A stretch of DNA of 35,926 bases. Origin: Candidatus Synechococcus spongiarum LMB bulk15M (GTDB lineage Bacteria > Cyanobacteriota > Cyanobacteriia > PCC-6307 > Cyanobiaceae). A model generated the notes under the pieces. That model did not search any database and was not told where the DNA came from. It worked only from the letters and a program-made list of their open reading frames with translations. The DNA is taken from assembly GCA_002018045.1 (NCBI GenBank), contig MWLD01000051.1, positions 1-35,926 on the forward strand, in the 5' to 3' direction. The translations under genes were made by a program, and so were the position numbers. Positions 4,811 to 25,378 of the stretch are shown here, in pieces. The first letter of the stretch is position 1; each line of letters begins with the position of its first letter.

Positions 4811-5314
4811 TTAAAGACTTTGTGAAAACTGGCTTGTTTTAAAGTTGAGCCTCTTGATAAGCTGCCAAGTGTTGCAGTGGCTGATGCCGAGATCTTTACA
4901 AACATCCGGAATATGGCGGTTCGCGCGTTTTTTACCAGGCTTTGAGACTTCGTTCGTTACAACGATACGTTCTTCAGTGTCGCGCAATGCATAGGCAATC
5001 AGAAATAGATCACCACCACAACTTTCCAGCTCCTTATCATTCAGATCCGATGCATATTTATTAACGACTTTATTAAGTGAAATGTTATCAATAGTCTCAT
5101 TCAGATATAGCGCAGCTTTGTTGTCCTTTAACCAGTGATCAAGATGATCTTCTTTGTTACCAGGAAGAATCTCCTCATAAATTTCATGAGGAATCTTGAC
5201 CTGCTGTTGTTGTGCATAGATCAGGAGCCAATTCCAAAACTCGGGGATCCGGTCAATGGGATAAAATTTATAGTGGGCGTCAATGAGGACGTTGGTATCC
5301 AGAAGATAAAGCAC
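4811..5314 (-). CDS. PIN-domain protein, DUF4411 family (probable toxin RNase)
   Basis: A 167-residue PIN-like protein. The N-terminus LYLLDTNVLIDAHYKF carries the first catalytic Asp of the fold. Later acidic positions occur in the middle and in CGGDLFLIAYAL, and the C-terminal VTNE segment completes the pattern of DUF4411 proteins. The start is GTG at 5314. A strong Shine-Dalgarno (GAGGAGGTGA) precedes it and overlaps the stop of the upstream gene, leaving four bases between the genes, so translation is probably coupled. DUF4411 proteins commonly occur downstream of XRE/ImmA-IrrE genes as toxin-antitoxin-like pairs. PIN toxins cut RNA; the target here is unknown. The gene is more AT-rich than the backbone genes, which suggests transfer. 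Confidence 0.85.
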   Translation of the reverse strand: MLYLLDTNVLIDAHYKFYPIDRIPEFWNWLLIYAQQQQVKIPHEIYEEILPGNKEDHLDHWLKDNKAALYLNETIDNISLNKVVNKYASDLNDKELESCGGDLFLIAYALRDTEERIVVTNEVSKPGKKRANRHIPDVCKDLGISHCNTWQLIKRLNFKTSQFSQSL

Positions 5315-5318
5315 TTAA

Positions 5319-6524
5319 TCACCTCCTCAACAAATCCTGGTGTTGAAATAACTTGCCAACCTGATAGGGCTTGATGCCTAGAATTCTCGCCACCCTGGCG
5401 GTTGATAGGGCATCGGAATCCATCATGCGTTGGCAGAACTGGAGCAAGGCCGGGCCAATGCGGTGCGCACGAACCGTGTAGTAGTCGGGACCACCTGACT
5501 GGGTCGTTTTTTTCTGGTCACGTTCACGCTTCTGCCACCCCGCAAGGAATGCTGAACATAGCGTATTACAGGTCTCTTGGTCAATACGATCAGCTTGCAG
5601 GAGCCGGTAAGCAACCATCATGTTGCTGAGGTTGTGGTCACTTGCAAAGCTGGTCACTTGCTCATTAATGTCTGCATGGTGAAGGGTCAGGCTTTCCAAT
5701 CGCCCATCCGGCAAAAGCCATTCCCCAGCAATCTGGTTGCAAAACTTTTCTTCCCGTCGGTGCTTCGCCTCACTGCCGCTCAGACCAGTCTGGCCCAGCA
5801 GCAGGTGAATCAACTCGTGCAGAAGTGTAAAAGACCATGCGGCAGGGGGGAAGTCGTATTCGTTGATCACCACAAAGGGGGCAACGGAATCAGCAATGGC
5901 AAAACCACGGAAAGCCTGAGGTCCAATTCTTGTGTGATGGCTGCCCAGATTTCCTTTGAGCACAACAAAGACGCCCCTTTGCTCCACATGGGAACGCAGC
6001 AGGGCAAAAGCCAACTTGGCATCCTGCTCTTTGTAATAGCGGCTCCTCAACTCTTCCGGCAATAGCTCTTGTAACAGTCTGTGGGCGGTTGTGGGATCGG
6101 TCCGCTTCTGCAACGCGCCAATGAACTCCAGGGGCCTGGCTTCGTCCTCGGCAATCAAAGTTGCCCGAACCATGTCCTGGCGGCTGAGCACATCGCGAAC
6201 CAGGGCATCCACAAGGGCATCCACATCGGGTTCCAGCGGGGAAGATACCCCTGCCGGTCGGCGGAAGTCCGTACCCCGCTCACCTTGCCGGGGCGGGGCG
6301 GGTAAGTAAAACGTGAGCAGGGGGCGATGGTAGATCCTGGCCATGGCGGCCAGCTTGGACCGCGTTGGCGCCTCCTCCCCACGCTCCAGGGCGGCAAGCC
6401 GTTCAGCCGCCGTCATTGTCCTTGTGTCCTTGAAGCCAAGCTTTGCCGCGGCCTCTACCTGGGTCCGGCCCGCGGTCTTCCGCGCCCAAACCAGAACTTC
6501 AGGATTGACGGTGACGGTCGGCAT
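5319..6524 (-). CDS. XRE-family regulator with ImmA/IrrE metallopeptidase domain
   Basis: A 401-residue protein. An N-terminal helix-turn-helix (about residues 8-60, including TQVEAAAKLGF and KLAAMARIY) is followed by a long linker and a DUF955 (ImmA/IrrE) zinc peptidase domain with the HELIH motif at 236-240. ImmA/IrrE proteins cleave partner repressors, while XRE-DUF955 fusions next to PIN genes serve as antitoxin and autoregulator of a toxin pair. The ATG at 6524 is chosen because family members begin almost at the VNPEVLVWAR segment; an in-frame ATG at 6587 would add 21 residues. It is the first gene of a two-gene operon with the DUF4411 gene. Whether it acts as antitoxin, protease or both is inferred. 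Confidence 0.85.
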   Translation of the reverse strand: MPTVTVNPEVLVWARKTAGRTQVEAAAKLGFKDTRTMTAAERLAALERGEEAPTRSKLAAMARIYHRPLLTFYLPAPPRQGERGTDFRRPAGVSSPLEPDVDALVDALVRDVLSRQDMVRATLIAEDEARPLEFIGALQKRTDPTTAHRLLQELLPEELRSRYYKEQDAKLAFALLRSHVEQRGVFVVLKGNLGSHHTRIGPQAFRGFAIADSVAPFVVINEYDFPPAAWSFTLLHELIHLLLGQTGLSGSEAKHRREEKFCNQIAGEWLLPDGRLESLTLHHADINEQVTSFASDHNLSNMMVAYRLLQADRIDQETCNTLCSAFLAGWQKRERDQKKTTQSGGPDYYTVRAHRIGPALLQFCQRMMDSDALSTARVARILGIKPYQVGKLFQHQDLLRR

Positions 6525-6677
6525 GGCAAGGAGCCTAACCCCCGTTGAGGAGGGCAGCAGTCCCCGATGCTCGTTATCCATGAACAAGCATCACAAAACC
6601 GTGACACCCCTTCTTCAGGTTCTGAACGAGCCCTTCCCCACAAGGCCAAGGACCAGCGCCCAAGCCTCCGGCAACGC

Positions 6678-7217
6678 CTAAACCGCCCCGTTGCCATGGC
6701 TGCGGGGACCCACCGCTGAACCCTGGCTTGGTTTGGCGTCGGTGATAGCGCTTGTGGCGCCCTGGTTGTTCGGCAACGGCAGTGGGTCGTCACGGAGCAG
6801 GGCCGCCACCACGGTCTCCAGTTGGTCGGCCTGGAGCAGACCCACGGAGCGTCCTCGCACGCTGCCGTCGGGTCCGTAGAAGAGAAAGGTGGGAACGCCA
6901 AGCACCTGGAACTGGTCCAGTTCCTGCTCCCAGAGGGGATTTTCCACGTTCAGTAACACCAGATCCAACGTGGCTCGGTGGGCTTGTCCGAGTTGCGCCA
7001 TGGTGGGCTCCATCTGGTGGCACACCTGACACCAATCTGCGTAAAACTCCACCAGGGTGGGCTTGCCGTTGCCGAGGGCCTCGTCCAGGGGCAGGGAGGT
7101 GCGCGCCAGAGCTTCAAGACCCTGGCTGTTCAGGGAGCGGGTCCAGAACACCACCACGGCCAGCAGCGCAGCTACGACGGCCAGGGCCTTGGCCATGGGG
7201 CGGTCTTTGTTGTCCAT
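6678..7217 (-). CDS. txlA: Membrane-anchored thioredoxin-like protein TxlA/HCF164
   Basis: A 179-residue protein with one N-terminal membrane segment (about 9-25) followed by a thioredoxin domain. The redox motif is WCQVC (62-66), in the sequence FYADWCQVCHQME, and the cis-proline region is GVPTFLF. The variable CxxC interior is typical of cyanobacterial TxlA, the relative of plant HCF164, which passes reducing power across the thylakoid membrane for cytochrome b6f maturation. The C-terminus is a low-complexity tail. It has its own start (ATG 7217) and points away from the following ferredoxin gene. Confidence 0.85.
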   Translation of the reverse strand: MDNKDRPMAKALAVVAALLAVVVFWTRSLNSQGLEALARTSLPLDEALGNGKPTLVEFYADWCQVCHQMEPTMAQLGQAHRATLDLVLLNVENPLWEQELDQFQVLGVPTFLFYGPDGSVRGRSVGLLQADQLETVVAALLRDDPLPLPNNQGATSAITDAKPSQGSAVGPRSHGNGAV

Positions 7218-7288
7218 TTCTCGGGGGACAGGACAGGTCTTTCTAATGGTCTCCGATTGCTAGTGTTTGCCGAACGCCTGAGTTTGCC

Positions 7289-7732
7289 ATGAAGCAGCGG
7301 CTGACGTTGCGCCTGCCTCGGGAGGCGTTGAACCAACCCATCACCTACCGGCTGGCCATCGACTACGACGTGGCCTCCAAAATCATTCGGGCGCAGATCG
7401 GTCCCCACCAGGAAGGGGTGATGGTGGTGGAGCTGGCAGGGGATATCGACGATCTGGCAGCAGCGACAGCGTGGCTGCGGCAGCAGGGGTTGGTGGTCAC
7501 TACGGCAGTGGGTCAACTCAGCATTGATCGGGACTGCTGTGTGGATTGCGGCATCTGCACCACGGTCTGTCCCACAGGTGCGCTACACATGGAACGGCCC
7601 CATTGGATCCTCCGGTTTGAAGTCCGGCGTTGTGTGGTGTGCGAACAATGTATTCCCAGTTGTCCCCTGGGGGCCATTCATCTGAATCTGCCGGCGCCGT
7701 CCGGCAGCAAGACCCGCCACGCCCAGGGGTGA
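7289..7732 (+). CDS. NIL-domain 4Fe-4S ferredoxin-type protein
   Basis: A 147-residue protein with an N-terminal NIL domain (about 1-75), the small ligand-binding fold also found in methionine ABC transporter ATPases. A two-cluster ferredoxin follows: CCVDCGICTTVCP (83-95) and CVVCEQCIPSCP (115-126). Each half has the CxxCxxCxxxCP spacing for a [4Fe-4S] cluster. NIL-ferredoxins are common in cyanobacteria and have been linked to homocysteine/methionine and sulfur metabolism, but the exact reaction is not settled. The gene is divergent from txlA and convergent with the transglycosylase gene; the 83-bp gap to the latter holds nothing recognised. Confidence 0.85.
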   Translation: MKQRLTLRLPREALNQPITYRLAIDYDVASKIIRAQIGPHQEGVMVVELAGDIDDLAAATAWLRQQGLVVTTAVGQLSIDRDCCVDCGICTTVCPTGALHMERPHWILRFEVRRCVVCEQCIPSCPLGAIHLNLPAPSGSKTRHAQG

Positions 7733-7815
7733 CGCCATCGATCAGCCCTTGCCGGCGCGTGTTGCACAGCGCCCGGTGTATTGGCTGATCGCCAACCGGC
7801 TCGTCGTGTTCACGG

Positions 7816-9741
7816 TCAGCCGGGGCGCTCGCTTCGGTTCTCCCCTTCCTTGGCCACGTCCTGCCCTGTCGGGTCCGGGCAGGGTGTGCCGTGGAGGCAG
7901 CTATAGGTCCACCAGAACCCCAGCACGTTTTTGACATAGAGACGCGTCTCGTCATAGGGGATGGCTTCGATCCAGAGCTCCGGCTGTTCTGCCAGACCGT
8001 CCGTGCCCCAACGGGCCACCGCTGCAGGCCCGGCATTGTAGCTGGCAATGGCAAGAATGGGTTGCTGGCGCCAATTCCGTAACTGCTGCGCCAGATAACG
8101 GGCGCCCAGATCCGCATTGATCTCGGCATCCAGGAGTTGGGTCTCCAGATCCTGATCTGCCAACTCTGTGGGAATCGACGCCCTGGACATGAGTTGAGCT
8201 GCTGTGGCAGGCATGAGCTGGAGCAGGCCCAGGGCGCCGACAACGGAGCGCTGAGCAGGTCGGAAGCGACTTTCCTGGCGGGCCGTGGCCAGCAACAGGG
8301 CTGGATCCAGCCCGTGACGCCGGGCTGCTGCCGCCAGGATCCGGCCGTAGAAGATGGGGTGGCGGACCTGCTCGAGGGCCAGGAGTTGACCTTCACTGGC
8401 GGGGCGGTTCCAACTGGCGTCGTCCAACTGCTCCAGCCCCATCCATGGATCCATGACAGCCAGTCGGAGCTGCCCCTCAATCCAGAGTTCGTCAGGGTCC
8501 CGAGGAGCCGTGGCGCTGCGCCAATGGCGCCAGTGCTCCCAAGCCAGCACGTCCAGCCCCGTGTTCCATAACCATGTCACGGCGTCGTCTCTGCTGCTGC
8601 GCCCCAGCGACGCTGTTGGAGAGAGTGGGAGAACCCGCGGCAGGGGAGACGGCCAGCTCACCTGCCCAAGGCGCACCTGGCTGAGCCAGCCGTAATAGCT
8701 CCACGGGGCCGACTGCGCCACCTGACGCCAGATCCGCACCGCCTCCTCCGACTGCCCCAGTTGCTGCTTCACAAAACCATGCCAGAAGTCCAGGCGGATG
8801 GCCTCGGCCAGGGTGAGACGGGGGGTGTTGGCAGCAGTGGCCAGTGCCTGTCGGGCCTGGAGCCAGGATCGCTGCAACAGCAACTCGCGAATGGCAGGCC
8901 ATGGATCCTCCGTGGCGGCGCCGGACTCGGCAACTCCTGGCCGACAGGCCTCGGCGGCGGCAGGATTGTCCACCCGCAACAAGGCATCGGCCAGGAGGGC
9001 GGCCGCAGTGGCGGGAAGTTGACTCCCCTCTTGCAAGCAGAGGTTGGCCAGGAGGGATTCGCTCCCCACTTGCCGTGGTCCCCAGCGGGCCAGGTGAAGA
9101 GCGCCGTCCAACTGGTGGGGGCCGGGGGTGCGGGCTGTGGTGAGGGCCGAGGCCAGGCTGGACGGATGGGCCGGAAACTGTTCCAGCAGTTCCTGATGCA
9201 GCGCATCGCCAGGCGTCCCCAGCCAGTATCGAGCGTCGGCGCTGGCCGGGGTGTCGGGAAAGCGAAGCAACAGGCTGCGCCAATGGGCATCTGCAGCGTC
9301 CGTCTGTCCACGGCGTTGCTCCGCCGTGGCCAACAGGACCAGCACCACGGAGGGCTCCGTGCGCAGACCACGGTGTTCTCCCCAGGCTTGCCCCGATAAC
9401 CAGTCCAGGTGATCGTCCGGGCTTTCCGCTGCGGCCGCCAGCACCAGGCGGGCCTGACGACGTCGTGACGGATCGGGACTGTAGCGGGCCGTACGGCGCA
9501 GCAGTGCCGGGGAACTCCAGCGATTGAGGAGGGGGCGGTTCCGAGCCAGGGCATGGCGCCCCGTCACCAGCAGAACCCAGCTCAACAGGCTGACGGCGCC
9601 CAGTAGAGCCACACCCGCACCCAGCTCGCGCCGACGTCCGTGGCCAAGGGATGGAGTTCCCCGGCACTGCTGCGCCGTAACGGCGCAGCAGTGCCGGGGA
9701 ACTCCAGCGATTGAGGAGGGGGCGGTTCCGAGCCAGGGCAT
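7816..9741 (-). CDS. Soluble lytic murein transglycosylase (Slt-like), 5' end rearranged
   Basis: A 641-residue frame. The C-terminal third is a lysozyme-like SLT domain with the catalytic Glu in ATARQESRFRP, then GLLQLMPATA, IASYNAGP and IPYDETRLYVKNVL. The preceding part is an alpha-helical superhelix like the Slt70 U-domain. The enzyme cleaves peptidoglycan glycan strands to 1,6-anhydro-muropeptides at the cell wall. The N-terminus is disturbed: a 187-bp event repeated the membrane-anchor segment (9493-9651 and 9680-9838). Because 187 is not a multiple of three, the original upstream frame, which could start at ATG 9961, now runs out of phase. The present frame can start at ATG 9741, inside the second copy in a shifted frame, or at GTG 9612, directly before the anchor helix VALLGAVSLLSWVLLV. 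The catalytic part looks intact, so the gene may still work. Confidence 0.8.
   Translation of the reverse strand: MPWLGTAPSSIAGVPRHCCAVTAQQCRGTPSLGHGRRRELGAGVALLGAVSLLSWVLLVTGRHALARNRPLLNRWSSPALLRRTARYSPDPSRRRQARLVLAAAAESPDDHLDWLSGQAWGEHRGLRTEPSVVLVLLATAEQRRGQTDAADAHWRSLLLRFPDTPASADARYWLGTPGDALHQELLEQFPAHPSSLASALTTARTPGPHQLDGALHLARWGPRQVGSESLLANLCLQEGSQLPATAAALLADALLRVDNPAAAEACRPGVAESGAATEDPWPAIRELLLQRSWLQARQALATAANTPRLTLAEAIRLDFWHGFVKQQLGQSEEAVRIWRQVAQSAPWSYYGWLSQVRLGQVSWPSPLPRVLPLSPTASLGRSSRDDAVTWLWNTGLDVLAWEHWRHWRSATAPRDPDELWIEGQLRLAVMDPWMGLEQLDDASWNRPASEGQLLALEQVRHPIFYGRILAAAARRHGLDPALLLATARQESRFRPAQRSVVGALGLLQLMPATAAQLMSRASIPTELADQDLETQLLDAEINADLGARYLAQQLRNWRQQPILAIASYNAGPAAVARWGTDGLAEQPELWIEAIPYDETRLYVKNVLGFWWTYSCLHGTPCPDPTGQDVAKEGENRSERPG
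9493..9651. repeat. 159-bp duplicated segment, copy 1 (inside the transglycosylase gene)
   Basis: Matches 9680-9838 with one visible difference (G at 9640, A at 9827). It encodes, on the - strand, the segment from GHGRRRELG through the anchor helix to SSPALLRR. Copy 1 is the one joined in frame to the rest of the enzyme. Confidence 0.95.
9652..9706. repeat. 55-bp perfect palindrome between the two copies
   Basis: Bases 9652-9678 are the exact reverse complement of 9680-9706 with one base (A at 9679) between. The left arm is therefore an inverted copy of the first 27 bases of the duplicated unit. This geometry suggests a fold-back template switch during replication. Confidence 0.95.
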
Positions 9742-15227: not shown

Positions 15228-16601
15228 GTGCAATCAACAGACCTGGACGCCTTCCCCTGCAGTTTGCCGCCCGACCAGCACAGTCCCACCATGGTGGCCC
15301 TGATCCGTCAGGCAGTGACATGGTTGGAGCGGTGGCATGAAGAGGCTGGGCAACGATCACCATTACCCGGTCCCGTTGCCCTGCCCCCCGTGGCGCCGGC
15401 GCCATGGGGGCTGGATGCCACCCGCCTCATGGAGGAGCTGGACCCGGTGGTGCGTGGTTCCTACAACCCTTGGCATCCTGGAGCCATGGCCCACCTGGAT
15501 CCCCCGCCCAACCCGGCCTCGGTGGTGGGGGAGTTGATCTGTGCCTGGCTCAACAACAACATGCTGGCGGAAGAACTCTCACCACTGCTCAGCCAACTGG
15601 AGCGGCGCCTGCTGCGCTGGATTGCCCAGCGTCTGGGTTTGGGGGACGACGCTGGCGGCATCATGGCCAGCGGTGGAACCGTTTGCACCATCACGGCCCT
15701 GGTCACGGCCCGCCATCAGCGGGGGCTGGATGAGCAACAGGCCTGCCTCTATGCCAGCGCCGATTGCCACAACTCCCTGGCCAAAGCCCTACGGGTGATG
15801 GGTTTGCCTGCTGCGAACCTGCGTCTGGTGCCTACCGATGCCACGGGGCGCCTGGACCCCCATCGACTGGATCAGGCCCTGGCCCGGGAAACGGAACCGA
15901 TCCTGGCAGTGGTAGCCACTGCCGGAACCACCATCCGCGGCGCTGTTGACCCCATCGGTCCCATTGCCGACATTTGCCGCCGCCGTGGCCTCTGGCTCCA
16001 CGTGGATGGCGCCATTGGCGCCGTCTGTGGTCTTGGTCAGCGCCATCAAGGGCGGGTCGCCCACATGGGCCGTGCCGACTCCCTCACCGTGAATCCCCAA
16101 AAATGGTTGGGCATTGCCAAGACTTCGGCCATGGTGTTGCTGCGCCAGCCCCGGGGATTGGTAGACACCTTTGCCACACCCCTGTCCTATATGGAGCCGG
16201 CTCGCGTGGCCCACGGTGGAGATTGCGGTCTCCAGGGAACCCGTCCGGCGGAGGTGCTGAAGCTTTGGCTCGGTCTGCGGCAACTGGGGCAGCACGGCAT
16301 TGACCAGCTTCTGGACGGGGCCCTGCACCGTGCTCGGGTGCTGCGTCAGGCCCTGTCCCCCTTGCCCCTGGTCATGCTGTCCGGGGATTTGCACATCGTC
16401 TGCTTCCGCCCCGGCGCCACCGGCAGCAGCGAGGCCTGGAGCCGCCACACCCGGGAGCAACTGCTGGATCAAGGCCTCATGCTCTCCCGCCCCCTCTATC
16501 GTGGACACCGCTACCTGAAAGCCGTTCTGGGCAATCCCTTCACCGGGGTGGAGCAGATTGCCACAGTGGTGGACACCGTCTCCGCAAGCCTCTCCCGTTA
16601 A
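15228..16601 (+). CDS. Pyridoxal-dependent decarboxylase (group II)
   Basis: A 457-residue aspartate aminotransferase-fold enzyme of the aromatic amino acid/glutamate/diaminobutyrate decarboxylase group. Features are the N-terminal LMEELDPVVRGSYNPWHPG, the substrate region GELICAWLNNNML, the cofactor segment TAGTTIRGAVDPI, LHVDGAIGAV with the PLP-nitrogen-binding Asp, and the Schiff-base Lys in SLTVNPQKWLGI. It decarboxylates an amino acid; the substrate cannot be told from the sequence. GTG 15228 gives the longest form; ATG 15291 is a possible alternative. The next small gene follows after three bases. Confidence 0.88.
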   Translation: MQSTDLDAFPCSLPPDQHSPTMVALIRQAVTWLERWHEEAGQRSPLPGPVALPPVAPAPWGLDATRLMEELDPVVRGSYNPWHPGAMAHLDPPPNPASVVGELICAWLNNNMLAEELSPLLSQLERRLLRWIAQRLGLGDDAGGIMASGGTVCTITALVTARHQRGLDEQQACLYASADCHNSLAKALRVMGLPAANLRLVPTDATGRLDPHRLDQALARETEPILAVVATAGTTIRGAVDPIGPIADICRRRGLWLHVDGAIGAVCGLGQRHQGRVAHMGRADSLTVNPQKWLGIAKTSAMVLLRQPRGLVDTFATPLSYMEPARVAHGGDCGLQGTRPAEVLKLWLGLRQLGQHGIDQLLDGALHRARVLRQALSPLPLVMLSGDLHIVCFRPGATGSSEAWSRHTREQLLDQGLMLSRPLYRGHRYLKAVLGNPFTGVEQIATVVDTVSASLSR

Positions 16602-16604
16602 ACC

Positions 16605-16862
16605 ATGGATCGCCCCAAGTTGGTGGCTCTGATCACAGGGATAGTCTCCATTGCCCTGGCAGTGCTCTACCTGGCCCTGGTGCTCGTTCTGGATCACCGC
16701 TCCGGACTGGCGCCGGCGCCGGTGGCGGGGTCGGTACTCGGTATGGTGAGACCTCCATTCACAAACGAGTTGGCACTCCATGCTCGACGAACGGCTTCGA
16801 GAAACTCGTCATGGGCATTGAGCAGCGCTTCAACGTCCCGTTCATTGCCGGAATGGCACTGA
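16605..16862 (+). CDS. Small single-pass membrane protein, 3' end replaced by islet sequence
   Basis: The frame begins MDRPKLVALITGIVSIALA and forms one membrane helix (about 8-29), then DHRSGLAPAPV. Within the 61-bp repeat (16664-16724) it leaves backbone sequence and runs on into the start of the methylase gene in another frame, so the last 40 or so residues are probably not original. Similar tiny genes sit after this decarboxylase in marine Synechococcus (recalled). The native 3' end may have been short. Function unknown. Confidence 0.55.
   Translation: MDRPKLVALITGIVSIALAVLYLALVLVLDHRSGLAPAPVAGSVLGMVRPPFTNELALHARRTASRNSSWALSSASTSRSLPEWH
16664..16724 (+). repeat. 61-bp direct repeat, left boundary of the methylase islet
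   Basis: Begins GCTCTACCTGGCCCTGG and matches 20269-20329 at 58 of 61 positions in the same orientation. It lies in the 3' part of the small membrane-protein gene. Confidence 0.92.
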
Positions 16863-18991
16863 AGGAAAAGCAGATCCAGCAGAATTATCGTCCTGTCATT
16901 GCTGTCCACAAGTGGTTTGCCCGACGTCCCGGGACGCTGTTCCGCGGACTGATGCTCGCGGAGTTCGGAGACGATGACCTGGAGCGTATGTTCTTTGAAT
17001 CAAACGACTTCTCGGGCCTTCGGATTGCCGACCCCTTCATGGGCGGTGGCACACCGTTGATTGAAGCCAACCGCATCGGTTGTGACGTCATCGGCTTTGA
17101 CGTGAATCCGATGGCCGCGTGGGTCGTCCGAGAAGAAATTCAAGGGCTTGACCTCAACAGCTACAGGCAAGCTGCCAACGAGCTTGTATCAACGCTGCAA
17201 GACCAGATCGGCGCCTACTATCGAACCTCATGCCCTCTCTATGGCGACCCTGACGTTCCCGTGAAGTCTTTTCTCTGGGTCAAGGTGCTTGAGTGTGACG
17301 CCTGCAGTTTCACGTTCGACCTGTTTCCGGGATATCTGCTTGCCGAAGACCGTCGCCACCCGAAGAACGTCGTGGTCTGTCACAAGTGTGGCGCATTGAA
17401 CGAGGTTGCAGAACGTCGTGCTCCAGGACACTGTCACGCGTGTGACGTCATTCTTTCCATCGCGGGACCCGCTCGTCAGGGGCGCTGCACATGTCCCTGC
17501 TGCGGGTACGAAAATCGTTATCCAGGTGACCGACGCGCTCCTCTAAACCATCGTCTCTTTGCGATCGAGTACTACAACCCGGAGAGAAAGCCGGTGCATA
17601 AGGGTCGCTTCTTCAAGAAACCCGATCCTGACGACATCGCACGGGTGGAAGCCGCCCGTGAACATTGGCGGCGCATGGACGAACGTTTTGTGCCCGACGA
17701 ACTAATTCCTCCTGGTGATGAAACCTCGCGACTGCACCGCTGGGGCTACAGTCGGTATCGACAGATGTTTAATCCTCGCCAGTTGTTGGGCCTGGAGGCC
17801 AGTTGCCGGTTGATTGCGGATGTACCGAACGAGAGGATCCGTGCCGCACTGGCCACCAACTTGTCGGATCTCTTGCGATACCAGAACATGTTGTGCCGCT
17901 ACGACACCATGGCTCTGAAGTCGCTGGATGTCTTTTCTATTCATGGTTTCCCGGTCGGTCTCGTGCAATGTGAATCCAACCTCCTGGGCATCATCAACGG
18001 TTCCGGTGTCAACGTAGGGTCGGGAGGCTGGTCGAACATTGTCCGGAAATACATCAGGGCGAAGAGCTACTGCGAAGCTCCCTTTGAAGTCCGATCCGAA
18101 GGAAAGCACAAGATACGTGTACCGATTGACGGCGAGTGGATAGGAGATTGCGCGAACAGCACGCGCCGGCGCATCGCCATCCACTGTGCAAACTCGGCCC
18201 AGGTTGCGCTGCCTGCCGGAACGCTGGATGCCGTGTTCACGGACCCGCCGTACTTCGGCAACGTCCAGTACGGTGAACTCATGGATTTCTGCTATGTCTG
18301 GCTCCGGCGACTGGCTCCGCCGGGTACGGAGGGTTTTGATCGGCCTTCCACACGGTCCACGGATGAACTGACCGGCAACGTTACCCAGTTGCGCGGCCTC
18401 GAGCACTTTGCGGAGGGACTGGCCAGCGTCTATTCCCACATGGCAGAGGCGCTGAAGCCTGAAGCACCTCTGGTGTTCACCTATCACCACAACAAACTGG
18501 ATGCCTACTGCGCCGTCGGGTTGGCGATCCTTGATGCCGGCCTCACCTGTTCGGCTACGTTGCCGTGCCCTGCGGAGATGGGAGGATCCATTCACATCCG
18601 TGGAACGGCTTCGTCTATTGTGGATACCGTCTTCGTATGCCGGGATTCCAGGGTCAGGCACGCCGAGAAGGAGACCCCGGCCACGGTTGCAGACCTGGTC
18701 GTGGTGGTTGCCCATGACCTCGCCCAATTAAGAATGGCGGGGAGAGCCGCAACTCACGGGGATGCCCGATGCGTCCTGTTCGGGCAATTGACGCGGGTAG
18801 CCGTGGAGCAACTGCGCCCGGACTGGAACCGATCCGCAACGACCGCTGAGAAGCTCTCACATCTACGGAACCGAATGGTTGCCTTTGGCGAGGTGGAAGC
18901 TCTTGCCCGCCAAGCGGCCGAGGCTTCATGCAAACCCAAATCACCCGTGCATACAGTGTCGGTCCAGAAAACCATGGGGGTACTATCGTGA
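16811..18991 (+). CDS. DUF1156-type DNA N6-adenine/N4-cytosine methylase
   Basis: A 726-residue methylase. The N-terminus IEQRFNVPFIAGMALKEKQ and HKWFARRPGTLFRG is characteristic of DUF1156 proteins. The SAM-binding motif is IADPFMGGGTPLIEA (Asp74 onwards) and the catalytic motif is DPPYFGNVQYG (478-488). The central part carries four CxxC-like pairs (CDAC, CHKC, CHAC, CPCC), suggesting one or two zinc ribbons. This type normally belongs to large defence operons; here the module is short. It should methylate the host DNA to mark it as self. Its TGA stop overlaps the GTG of the next gene (GTGA), so the two are translated together. The start has only a weak AGAAA upstream. Confidence 0.9.
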   Translation: MGIEQRFNVPFIAGMALKEKQIQQNYRPVIAVHKWFARRPGTLFRGLMLAEFGDDDLERMFFESNDFSGLRIADPFMGGGTPLIEANRIGCDVIGFDVNPMAAWVVREEIQGLDLNSYRQAANELVSTLQDQIGAYYRTSCPLYGDPDVPVKSFLWVKVLECDACSFTFDLFPGYLLAEDRRHPKNVVVCHKCGALNEVAERRAPGHCHACDVILSIAGPARQGRCTCPCCGYENRYPGDRRAPLNHRLFAIEYYNPERKPVHKGRFFKKPDPDDIARVEAAREHWRRMDERFVPDELIPPGDETSRLHRWGYSRYRQMFNPRQLLGLEASCRLIADVPNERIRAALATNLSDLLRYQNMLCRYDTMALKSLDVFSIHGFPVGLVQCESNLLGIINGSGVNVGSGGWSNIVRKYIRAKSYCEAPFEVRSEGKHKIRVPIDGEWIGDCANSTRRRIAIHCANSAQVALPAGTLDAVFTDPPYFGNVQYGELMDFCYVWLRRLAPPGTEGFDRPSTRSTDELTGNVTQLRGLEHFAEGLASVYSHMAEALKPEAPLVFTYHHNKLDAYCAVGLAILDAGLTCSATLPCPAEMGGSIHIRGTASSIVDTVFVCRDSRVRHAEKETPATVADLVVVVAHDLAQLRMAGRAATHGDARCVLFGQLTRVAVEQLRPDWNRSATTAEKLSHLRNRMVAFGEVEALARQAAEASCKPKSPVHTVSVQKTMGVLS

Positions 18992-20031
18992 AGTTTCCGT
19001 TTGAGGTCTCCTTTGAGGAAGTCCAGGCCGACCTGGATGTTTATGTCGATGCCGTGTTCGGTTGCCTGACGTCCGAGTTCCTTGTCATGCCTAAGGGCAA
19101 GGGATTCATCGAGTTTGCAGTGTTTGAAGAGGGATATGAACGCTTGAAGCGTGCAACAGGCGGGTTTCGTGAGGTAACGCCCGAGACAGTTGGCGCCGCC
19201 GTGTACGACACCCCGATTGCACTTGTTGTTCTCCGATGCATGATCGGTTTTACGCCTCCGGAATGGGCATACTATGCTAGCCGCCAGACTGGTATCAGTG
19301 TGACACAGAATGCAGCTCGTGCCATTGATCGCAATATCCGCATGGATCCGAAAGCTTCGTTGCCAAGTCCAGGGACCGTGCAGGGGCGGCGTATTCGCGC
19401 CCTGATCTCTGCCGCCTGTGATGCCCTTGCATCCGGTGTACCTCGACAGGCCAACGATACCCTGCACCGCCTGGACAAGGCCGATACAAAGGCAGGGCTG
19501 GTCAGCGTCAGGGCATCCGCCAGCCTCGGTGTTCCCTATTCCGTTCTTCTGTACGAACGCCTCCTGGGACGTCCTTTTGCCGGACATCGTGACTCGATCA
19601 GTGAACTGATTGGTAACGTGATTGAGAACGCCATTGAGAACGTATTGACGGAGGCAGGAATCAGCTTTCGCAAGACAAGGCGGGCAGAGCGCTTGGCGGG
19701 CTTTGACCAGGCGCCGGATTTCGTAGTGCCGAACGAGTTCAACCCCAAGGTTGTGATCGAGGCCAAACTGACGGAAGACGACGGCACGGCGCGGGATAAG
19801 GTTACCCGGGTCCAGCATCTTGGAGCCCTCAGCCTGGAAGGGCAACCTCCAGGCAGGCCGAGGTTCGAGGTCGTCGCTTGTATTGCGGGTAGGGGATTCG
19901 GCGTTCGCCGCGAAGACATGAAGAAACTGCTGCTCGCCACACGGGGCAAGGTGTTCACCTTGAGAAATATACCCGACCTTGTGGATAAAACACTCCTGAC
20001 GGACTTCCGCCCAATTTCCCATACAGTGTGA
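18988..20031 (+). CDS. Candidate PD-(D/E)XK nuclease coupled to the methylase
   Basis: A 347-residue protein that I do not recognise as a named family. The C-terminal half contains DFVVPNEFNPKVVIEAK (Asp244, Glu258, Lys260), the D...ExK pattern of PD-(D/E)XK nucleases, after a helix with ENAIENVLTEAGI. The N-terminal half has no obvious motif and may bind DNA. The GTG at 18988 overlaps the methylase stop, which favours this start over an upstream ATG at 18928. The arrangement suggests it is the restriction half of a two-gene restriction-modification unit. Alternatives are a nuclease that needs other subunits, now lost, or a regulatory partner. Confidence 0.6.
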   Translation: MKFPFEVSFEEVQADLDVYVDAVFGCLTSEFLVMPKGKGFIEFAVFEEGYERLKRATGGFREVTPETVGAAVYDTPIALVVLRCMIGFTPPEWAYYASRQTGISVTQNAARAIDRNIRMDPKASLPSPGTVQGRRIRALISAACDALASGVPRQANDTLHRLDKADTKAGLVSVRASASLGVPYSVLLYERLLGRPFAGHRDSISELIGNVIENAIENVLTEAGISFRKTRRAERLAGFDQAPDFVVPNEFNPKVVIEAKLTEDDGTARDKVTRVQHLGALSLEGQPPGRPRFEVVACIAGRGFGVRREDMKKLLLATRGKVFTLRNIPDLVDKTLLTDFRPISHTV

Positions 20032-20069
20032 TAGCCTGAGTAAGCAACCAGCCATGGGGTAGCAGATTG

Positions 20070-20219
20070 ATGTCCGAATTCAAATTCTCGCAACTGGGAC
20101 TGGCGAGCATATTGAGCCAGAACAGGCTGGTCGTGCCGCCAAACCAGAGAAACTACTCTTGGACAAAGGACCGTCAAAAAAAGCTGAGCGAACTGGCACT
20201 AACAACATGGCCGTTTTAG
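20070..20219 (+). pseudogene. Truncated DUF262 (GmrS-like) protein, 49 residues
   Basis: An ATG frame starts MSEFKFSQLGLASIL, contains VVPPNQRNYSWTKDRQKKL and stops at TAG 20217-20219. The 'P.QR.Y.W' block after a short N-terminal helix is the hallmark start of DUF262 proteins, which use a ParB-like nuclease fold and act against modified phage DNA (GmrSD, BrxU). Full proteins are several hundred residues long, so this is an N-terminal remnant. Its presence behind the nuclease suggests the islet once carried more defence genes. Confidence 0.6.
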
Positions 20220-20268
20220 CTGTGTGCAACTCAGATGAAATGTGAGACGGGGCGAATGCCTTAGCGCC

Positions 20269-20329
20269 GCTCTACCTGGCCCTGGTGCTCATTCCGGATC
20301 ACCGCTCCGGAATGGCGCCGGCGCCGGTG
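20269..20329 (+). repeat. 61-bp direct repeat, right boundary of the methylase islet
   Basis: Matches 16664-16724 with three differences. It overlaps the last codons of the GTPase gene (APAPAPFRSGDPE on the - strand). Similarity ends on both sides of the 61 bases. Confidence 0.92.
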
Positions 20330-24532: not shown

Positions 24533-24691
24533 GGGGAAGGAGGGTACGGCGAGTGAAACGGAGGCAGCCGGACAGGCAGCGGTGATCCGGTGGACAGGTC
24601 AGGAGCAACTGTTTGCACGGTCTGTCTCCCACAGTTGCCCCATGGTGTTGGAGAGTCTTGGCGGACCCGTGTCGCGTGGATCCGGGAGGCC

Positions 24692-25114
24692 TTAAAGCCA
24701 GGGGTTTGCAAGCATGACGCTATCCGGCAATTCGGAGCAACTGGGCAGAACGTCAATCATACTGCTGGTCTCGTCTCCTTCTTCGGTGCAACTTGCAAAA
24801 AGCGGGCCTTGACTTCCTTCACTGATTCGTCTAATAGCATCATCTTTCATATGGAACACGTTGAAGTGATCGCATGAGCATCCTGTTTTCACTCCACTAT
24901 CAAAGACCACGCAGAGCCTGGCGCCTGTCTTGTCATTCTTGGTAAGGAATTGGTGGCCCTTTTGATCCATATAACCTTTCTGACCGCCAACAATGAAGAA
25001 GTCATCCACATTGATTTCACTATTACCCTTATTTTCCTTGAAGGAACGTGCGTCCCGTAAGCCAGGGTCAAGTTTCTTTTGAACTTGGTCAAAGTCTGGT
25101 TCGAAGGTTGCGTT
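24692..25114 (-). pseudogene. Decayed GIY-YIG nuclease family gene
   Basis: The frame reads FEPDFDQVQKKLDPGLRDA, then VDDFFIVGGQKGYMDQKG and TKNDKTGARLCVVFDSG, then GPLFASCTEEGDET. These blocks in this order match the middle of a large GIY-YIG nuclease family (recalled). The next part should be the catalytic 'GTIYVLRS' strand, but here it is SSMIDVLPS and the frame ends at 24692. The upstream boundary is an in-phase stop at 25115-25117; a frame at 25089-25322 in another phase might hold a piece of the 5' part, but I could not match it. The gene is therefore truncated, probably frameshifted and catalytically dead. The rest of 24533-25378 shows nothing else. Confidence 0.55.
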
Positions 25115-25378
25115 TCAGGAATTCTACACCTTCAGCCGTCTTCTTCTCCCGGGGGTCGGTTGACGTGATGGACAGTAACCGTCCGTAGTCCTGTTTGAAC
25201 CGGAAAGCCTGCTGCGCCAAGCCACGAGCCTCTGAAGGCACAAACCCCGCCGCTCGCTCGGATTTAGCGTGCAGATGGAGAGAATGACGGTCGAGGCGGG
25301 TGTATGGATAGTCGGTTGACAAGGTTGATCAGGAGAACGCCCCGGCCACACATCGGCAGCCGGGGGTTCATCACCCAA

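What the first reader, a model, noticed from the sequence alone, without database searches (positions are those of the whole stretch)
16664..20329. 61-bp direct repeats bound an inserted methylase/nuclease islet without a recombinase
The repeats (58 of 61 identical) derive from the 3' region of two convergent backbone genes, and both genes keep a usable 3' end. This is the pattern of site-specific integration at gene ends, but the islet carries no integrase. It may be a passive element mobilised in trans.
Basis: partly seen in the sequence, partly recalled or inferred. Interest (0 to 1): 0.7.

Follow-up and report, generated by a model that had tools for sequence, protein, structure and literature searches.

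The report
Restriction-modification islet with decayed target duplication
A two-gene DNA-methylase/nuclease cassette inserted long ago between two genes of a sponge-associated cyanobacterium and duplicated about 500 bases of the target; the 61-base repeats seen today are what is left of that duplication, probably kept because the two neighbouring genes overlap there and each needs its own copy.

Summary
The repeats are real (16664-16724 and 20269-20329, 58/61) and bound a DNA methylase / PD-(D/E)XK nuclease islet with no recombinase. The window is a MAG of sponge-type Synechococcus; its genus has 10 held genomes. One (G008) has the empty site: decarboxylase, a small membrane-protein ORF and the GTPase adjacent, with one repeat. 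So this is an insertion with target duplication.

It does not look like site-specific integration. The left junction is shared by six genomes, but the duplicated copy on the right begins at different places in each. The longest begins about 520 bp back, inside the decarboxylase gene (G004); the shortest begins 6 bp before the GTPase stop codon (G006). The 61 bp are a decay remnant. In the empty site and in 20 outgroup loci the small ORF and the GTPase overlap tail-to-tail by 71-170 bp, so each needs its own copy.

Islet and backbone are similarly diverged with the same four-genome topology, so the islet is old and vertically inherited. The empty genome is nested among islet carriers, so it probably lost the islet cleanly.

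This fits the known 'insertion with long target duplication' of restriction-modification genes (Nobusato et al. 2000). The ancestral islet had a third gene (GmrSD type), now a 49-codon remnant here.

The parts
15228..16601 (+). backbone: PLP-dependent decarboxylase (left flank)
   Evidence: Pfam Pyridoxal_deC E 8e-44; orthologues in all 9 congeners
16605..16862 (+). backbone: small membrane-protein ORF; conserved core is codons 1-40 (16605-16724), the tail is new sequence from the islet side
   Evidence: homologues follow the decarboxylase in 20 of 20 outgroup loci
16664..16724 (+). left copy of the 61-bp direct repeat (codons 21-40 of the small ORF)
16728..16760 (+). left junction of the islet (GTATGGTGAG at 16741-16750), shared by six congeners; homology to the empty site ends at about 16727
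16811..18991 (+). islet gene 1: DNA methylase, DUF1156-like N-terminus, DPFMGGGT and DPPYF motifs
   Evidence: dN/dS 0.16-0.20
18988..20031 (+). islet gene 2: restriction-endonuclease-like protein, PD-(D/E)XK (P243 D244 ... E258-A-K260), start GTG overlapping the methylase stop
   Evidence: alignment A1; model resembles PspGI/BsoBI/SgrAI catalytic domains weakly; dN/dS 0.12-0.16
20070..20219 (+). remnant (49 codons, internal deletion of about 1.5 kb) of islet gene 3, a DUF262/GmrSD-type protein
   Evidence: first and last codons match the G004 gene, which hits GmrSD_N and GmrSD_C
20220..20256 (+). right end of the islet (CAGATGAAATGTGAGACGGGG), shared with G004
20269..20329 (+). right copy of the 61-bp direct repeat; carries the GTPase stop codon
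20289..21872 (-). backbone: GTPase with DUF697 (right flank), convergent with the small ORF
   Evidence: Pfam DUF697 1.5e-45; overlaps the small ORF by 128 bp in the empty site

Best explanation
A restriction-modification islet (methylase, PD-(D/E)XK endonuclease, and originally a third GmrSD-type gene) inserted once, before the sampled species of this sponge Synechococcus genus diverged, at the 3' end of a small ORF. The event left a direct duplication of at least about 520 bp, from decarboxylase codon ~325 to the 3' end of the small ORF. [quoted passage not shown] Since then the surplus copies have decayed differently in each lineage. What survives is set by need: the small ORF and the GTPase overlap tail-to-tail in the ancestral arrangement, so after the insertion the left copy serves the small ORF and the right copy supplies the GTPase's C-terminal codons and stop. 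In the window that overlap is the 61-bp repeat. Shown by sequence: empty site, shared left junction, variable right-copy length, reciprocal retention of the small-ORF copies, the gene overlap, purifying selection on both islet genes, and agreement of islet and backbone trees for four genomes. Inferred: a single insertion, decay of one long duplication, selection on the overlap as the reason for retention, and clean loss in G008 by recombination between the repeats. Not known: the enzyme that made the insertion.
For: Empty site in G008, on a 112-kb contig, with no methylase homologue anywhere in that 98%-complete genome. In empty-site coordinates (L034) the left copy ends at 1770-1786 in G000, G002, G003, G004 and G006, followed by the same '(G/A)GTATGGTGAG'-like junction (G005 too, with an internal deletion of the small ORF). 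The right copy starts at 1253 in G004 (with 1321-1638 deleted), 1625-1628 in G005, G007 and G009 (end of the decarboxylase plus the whole small ORF), 1692 in G003, 1698 in G000 and 1724 in G006; the GTPase stop is at 1730. Reciprocal retention: whole small ORF on the left only (G000, G002, G003, G006), on the right only (G005, G007, G009), on both sides (G004). Overlap of small ORF and GTPase: 128 bp in G008, 71-170 bp in 20 outgroup loci. Methylase DNA identity 83-87% against backbone 86-89%; quartet G000+G003 | G004+G005 in both islet and backbone. dN/dS 0.12-0.20 in islet genes. G008 groups with G002 and G004 at 100/100. In G006 the two copies are 81.6% alike, lower than its left copy against most other species' copies, so the duplication is old. 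Long and variable target duplications at RM genes are documented (PMC3031569; PMC1643837).
Against: The ~520-bp extent rests on one genome (G004), with an internal deletion. Independent insertions with different duplication lengths at the same left point are less parsimonious but not excluded, and in G000 the right-copy deletion would have to begin at or next to the islet end. In G005, G006, G007, G009 and G003 the left and right sides lie on different contigs or in rearranged surroundings, so the pairing of copies there is inferred. The backbone quartet has only 84/88 support. For G002 only the decarboxylase supports its place in the tree. Duplicated tracts are short (23-75 bp) in several genomes.
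Confidence: 0.77

Rival explanations
1. One reading: a passive element integrated site-specifically at the gene ends by a recombinase supplied in trans, with the 61-bp repeat as attL/attR.
For: Direct repeat at gene 3' ends, empty site with one copy, no recombinase in the islet.
Against: Duplication length varies from about 55 to about 520 bp between congeners with the same left junction. No tRNA in the window. Islet diverges in step with the backbone. No other cargo bounded by the same repeat was found: where the islet is gone, IS fragments or rearranged backbone follow.
Confidence: 0.07
2. Campbell-type entry: a circle or plasmid carrying the islet plus a piece of the decarboxylase/small-ORF region integrated by RecA-dependent single crossover, so the duplication is homologous DNA brought in by the donor and not a copy of the target.
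For: Gives the same anatomy (long direct repeats around foreign DNA, no recombinase) and explains how G008 could lose the islet cleanly. Copies within a genome differ about as much as copies between species.
Against: Needs a donor that had already joined the islet to congeneric backbone DNA; none seen. The shared left junction and tree agreement need only one event.
Confidence: 0.25
3. Several independent insertions or horizontal replacements of the islet at this locus by homologous recombination through the flanks.
For: Right junctions differ in every genome. In G003 the islet lies beside an M16 peptidase gene on the far side of the GTPase block.
Against: Identical left junction in six genomes. 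Decay products of one longer duplication explain the right junctions. Islet and backbone topologies agree.
Confidence: 0.12
4. Assembly artefact of metagenome bins (repeat-induced misjoin).
For: All genomes used are draft bins and several contigs end at or near the site.
Against: The islet sits in the decarboxylase-GTPase interval within single contigs in two bins (the window and the 32-kb G004 contig) and next to the decarboxylase in a third (G005), each with its own divergent sequence. Decayed remnants are unlike any misjoin.
Confidence: 0.02

Closest known systems
Insertion with long target duplication of restriction-modification genes (Nobusato, Uchiyama, Ohashi & Kobayashi 2000, Gene 259:99; described in PMC1643837, PMC3031569)
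   Same: RM genes inserted with a long, variable direct duplication of the target and no recombinase; empty site in a relative
   Different: Here the duplication is old and largely decayed, and the surviving 61 bp coincide with an overlap of two convergent genes. Known cases that I could read about are in Helicobacter; this one is in a sponge cyanobacterium. The original 2000 paper was not available to read.
Integrative elements with attL/attR in gene 3' ends (tyrosine-recombinase islands)
   Same: Direct repeat at a gene 3' end, host genes keep their ends
   Different: No recombinase, no fixed repeat length, no tRNA target
DUF1156 / Type-3-BREX-like adenine methylases (BREX-related systems, PMC12839542; NCBIfam NF042963; PADLOC DUF1156_MTase, HmaB)
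   Same: Methylase shows partial similarity (E 7e-28 to NF042963) and a weak DUF1156 N-terminus
   Different: 726 aa against about 960; score 97 bits against a cut-off of 1000; no DUF499 ATPase or helicase nearby; the partner is a single PD-(D/E)XK protein with no Pfam family
GmrSD (DUF262/DUF1524) type IV restriction enzymes
   Same: Third gene of the fuller G004 islet matches GmrSD_N and GmrSD_C
   Different: Interrupted by a stop codon in G004, reduced to 49 codons in the window, and not a general partner of the methylase-nuclease pair

Membership tests
Insertion with long target duplication of RM genes | Direct repeats flank the inserted RM genes and are single-copy in a relative's empty site | tested here: met
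   G008 empty site with one copy; two copies in G000 and G004
Insertion with long target duplication of RM genes | Duplication long and variable, not a fixed short transposase-type duplication | tested here: met
   About 55 to about 520 bp of overlap among congeners; part of the variation is later decay
Insertion with long target duplication of RM genes | Inserted unit is a restriction-modification system | tested here: inconclusive
   Methylase motifs and a PD-(D/E)XK partner, both under purifying selection, pair conserved in 71 of 77 distant loci; no activity known
Insertion with long target duplication of RM genes | Insertion generated by the copying event itself and not by homologous entry of a donor segment | not testable with these tools
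   The event predates the sampled species
Site-specific integrative element (att at gene 3' end) | Fixed att core shared by all insertions | tested here: not met
   Right copy begins at a different place in each genome
Site-specific integrative element (att at gene 3' end) | Encodes or once encoded a recombinase | tested here: not met
   None in the window islet or in the fuller G004 islet
Type II restriction-modification system | DNA methylase plus cognate endonuclease side by side | tested here: inconclusive
   Adjacent and overlapping genes, PD-(D/E)XK residues invariant in 28 sequences, weak fold matches to PspGI (Z 8.6), BsoBI (8.0), Ecl18kI (7.0); cleavage untested
BREX-related DUF1156 system | DUF499 ATPase and helicase partners | tested here: not met
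   Absent from the window islet and the G004 islet

The most novel reading that the evidence does not exclude
The overlap between the convergent genes acts as a filter: at such overlaps only insertions that duplicate the target leave both genes intact, and the surviving repeat is trimmed to the minimum the genes need. Repeats that look like att sites at overlapping gene ends would then be a general selection product and not a trace of a recombinase. In addition, the methylase / PD-(D/E)XK pair would be an unnamed restriction-modification family that moves between phyla without any recombinase.
Probability: 0.3. Interest if true: 0.55.

Novelty: new member of a known kind. Interest (0 to 1): 0.38.

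Why it matters
It gives a series of stages (empty, full, part-decayed, scar only) for one RM insertion with long target duplication across a genus. It shows how a repeat that looks like an att site can be what decay leaves of a longer duplication, trimmed to what two overlapping genes need. It also warns against reading direct repeats at gene ends as recombinase footprints. The methylase-nuclease pair carried here is widespread (242 matching stretches found; the nuclease is about 45-75% identical outside the genus) and, as far as I could find, uncharacterised.

Tried and rejected
(1) tRNA-type integration: no tRNA in the window. (2) General tendency of this RM pair to sit in target duplications in other phyla: direct repeats of 40 bp or more within 700 bp of both ends in 6 of 60 distant loci against 0 of 137 control positions (p 0.0007). 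Inspection shows mixed causes: L166 looks like fragments of a REP-type transposase gene, L112, L110 and L144 have three or more copies, L156 is a hairpin repeat; only L158 (73 bp) looks like a plain flanking duplication. I do not count this as support. (3) Horizontal mobility within the genus from tree conflict: none found. (4) Duplication age from a tree of the repeat copies: 120 bp give no well-supported branches. (5) Sequence match of the nuclease in Pfam, NCBIfam, PADLOC or PDB: none above cut-off. (6) Furuta et al. 2010 (PMC2853133) is not in the library, so published duplication lengths were not checked.
Full report
Observation. The window holds a 61-bp direct repeat, 58 identical, at 16664-16724 and 20269-20329, extending at lower identity to 83 bp. 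A 21-bp core occurs only at these two places (0.01 expected). Between them lie a DNA methylase gene (16811-18991) and a second gene starting with GTG at 18988, overlapping the methylase stop and ending at 20031. The islet is 0.54-0.60 GC against 0.64-0.68 outside. No recombinase is present. The flanks are a PLP-dependent decarboxylase and, convergent to it, a GTPase with DUF697. The repeat is its codons 21-40.

Source and relatives. The window is a contig of a 1.5-Mb draft genome with nine held congeners. Islet-bearing congeners are named in public records as Synechococcus sp. SB0662_bin_14, SB0668_bin_13 and Prochlorococcaceae bin jk18x1bzbins.87. From my own knowledge these bin series come from marine sponges, so the group is likely the sponge symbiont 'Candidatus Synechococcus spongiarum' or close kin; this is inferred.

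Empty site. In G008 (locus L034, on a 112-kb contig) the decarboxylase stop is at 1647, the small ORF runs 1651-1857 and the GTPase stop is at 1730 on the other strand, with one copy of the repeat and no islet. No methylase homologue is found anywhere in that genome, so this is not a collapsed assembly. In 20 loci from other genera of the family the three genes are adjacent in the same arrangement and the small ORF overlaps the GTPase by 71-170 bp. This arrangement is therefore ancestral.

The duplicated tract has no fixed length. In L034 coordinates the left copy ends at 1773 (G000, the window), 1770 (G004), 1782 (G003, G006) and 1786 (G002), and is followed in each by a short related sequence, (A/G)GTATGGTGAG or near it; G005 has the same junction after an internal deletion of the small ORF. 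The right copy starts at 1253 in G004, inside the decarboxylase gene, with 1321-1638 missing; at 1625-1628 in G005, G007 and G009, where a 20-50-bp end of the decarboxylase precedes an entire small ORF; at 1692 in G003; at 1698 in the window; and at 1724 in G006, 6 bp from the GTPase stop codon. The small ORF is whole on the left only in G000, G002, G003 and G006 (the right side of G002 is not assembled), on the right only in G005, G007 and G009, and on both sides in G004. The simplest reading is one insertion that left a duplication of about 520 bp or more, followed by different trimming of the surplus copies. In the window, G003 and G006 the right copy has been trimmed to within 6-38 bp of the GTPase stop codon, and the left copy carries the conserved 40-codon core of the small ORF. 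I infer that the need of both genes for the overlapping segment is why any repeat remains.

Age and inheritance. Methylase DNA identities among G000, G003, G004 and G005 are 83-87%, backbone genes 86-89%. Synonymous divergence is somewhat higher in the methylase (0.39-0.60) than in the backbone (0.30-0.41), and close to it in the nuclease (0.34-0.46). The four-genome topology is the same for islet and backbone: G000+G003 | G004+G005, supports 98/98 and 84/88. Both islet genes are under purifying selection (dN/dS 0.12-0.20). In G006 the two repeat copies are 81.6% alike, less than its left copy is to most other species' copies. On the decarboxylase+GTPase tree the empty genome G008 groups with G002 and G004 at 100/100, that is, within carriers or remnant holders; I infer a clean secondary loss, as recombination between the direct repeats would produce, or replacement by an empty allele.

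Decay of the islet. G004 carries a third gene after the nuclease that matches GmrSD_N and GmrSD_C, interrupted by an in-frame stop. The window keeps its first and last codons as a 49-codon ORF (20070-20219), G005 keeps only the start. G006 keeps the first ~106 bp of the islet and then a DDE_3 (IS630-type) transposase fragment; G003's original site has an IS4/5-type fragment after the left junction. G003 has the methylase and nuclease beside an M16 peptidase gene on the far side of the GTPase block: a relocation by an unknown route, without flanking repeats.

What the islet does. The methylase has the DPFMGGGT and DPPYF motifs, a weak DUF1156 N-terminus and partial similarity to DUF1156-type anti-phage methylases, far below their cut-off. 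The partner has no Pfam, NCBIfam, PADLOC or PDB sequence match above cut-off, but 28 homologues share an invariant PD(244)...E(258)-x-K(260). A model of moderate confidence (pLDDT 81.5, pTM 0.53) has its best, weak, matches among restriction endonucleases (BstEII, EcoT38I and BsoBI by Foldseek, E 0.1-0.3; PspGI Z 8.6, BsoBI 8.0 and Ecl18kI 7.0 by VIA-align). The pair is conserved next to each other in 71 of 77 distant loci in many phyla, where the third gene is not a regular partner. A two-gene restriction-modification system is the likely function; no activity has been shown.

Comparison with the known. Long and variable target duplications accompanying insertion of restriction-modification genes are described for Helicobacter (Nobusato et al. 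2000, as reported in PMC1643837; PMC3031569; PMC4978471). This locus works like that, and I file it as a new member of that kind, with the reservation that the copying step itself cannot be told from Campbell-type entry of a donor segment. It fails the tests for a site-specific integrative element: no fixed core, no recombinase.

Verdict. Observation confirmed; insertion confirmed; att-site and trans-mobilisation reading not supported. The instructive part is that the 61 bp are the remainder of a longer duplication and coincide with the overlap of two convergent genes.

Noticed in passing
window 16811-20031 and L092-L168: The methylase / PD-(D/E)XK pair is a widespread two-gene module (71 of 77 distant loci; 242 matching stretches) with no family name for the nuclease in Pfam, NCBIfam or PADLOC.
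   Followed up: partly
L085 (G003:C81) 5182-8402: In G003 the islet lies upstream of an M16 peptidase gene and not between decarboxylase and GTPase, while the left-junction scar remains at the old site.
   Followed up: partly
window 24540-25330: Lower-GC stretch with fragmentary ORFs upstream of the M16 peptidase gene, the same place where G003 carries the relocated islet; possibly a second variable site.
   Followed up: no
L038, L040, L082 (G007, G009, G005): Decarboxylase and GTPase regions lie in unrelated surroundings in several congeners; the break falls at this locus, as if the direct repeats or IS copies fed chromosome rearrangement.
   Followed up: partly
L033 7300-7700 and L083 right end (last 260 bases): IS630-type transposase fragments at both the left scar and beside the right repeat copy in G006 (the second one recognised by eye only).
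   Followed up: partly
L166 5338-5451 and 9283-9395: 114-bp direct repeat (94%) around the same RM pair in a deltaproteobacterial bin; it appears to be a fragment of a REP-type transposase gene, not a target duplication.
   Followed up: partly
L091 5295-6335: In G005 the nuclease motif reads IEPK where the other 27 sequences read IEAK; effect unknown.
   Followed up: no
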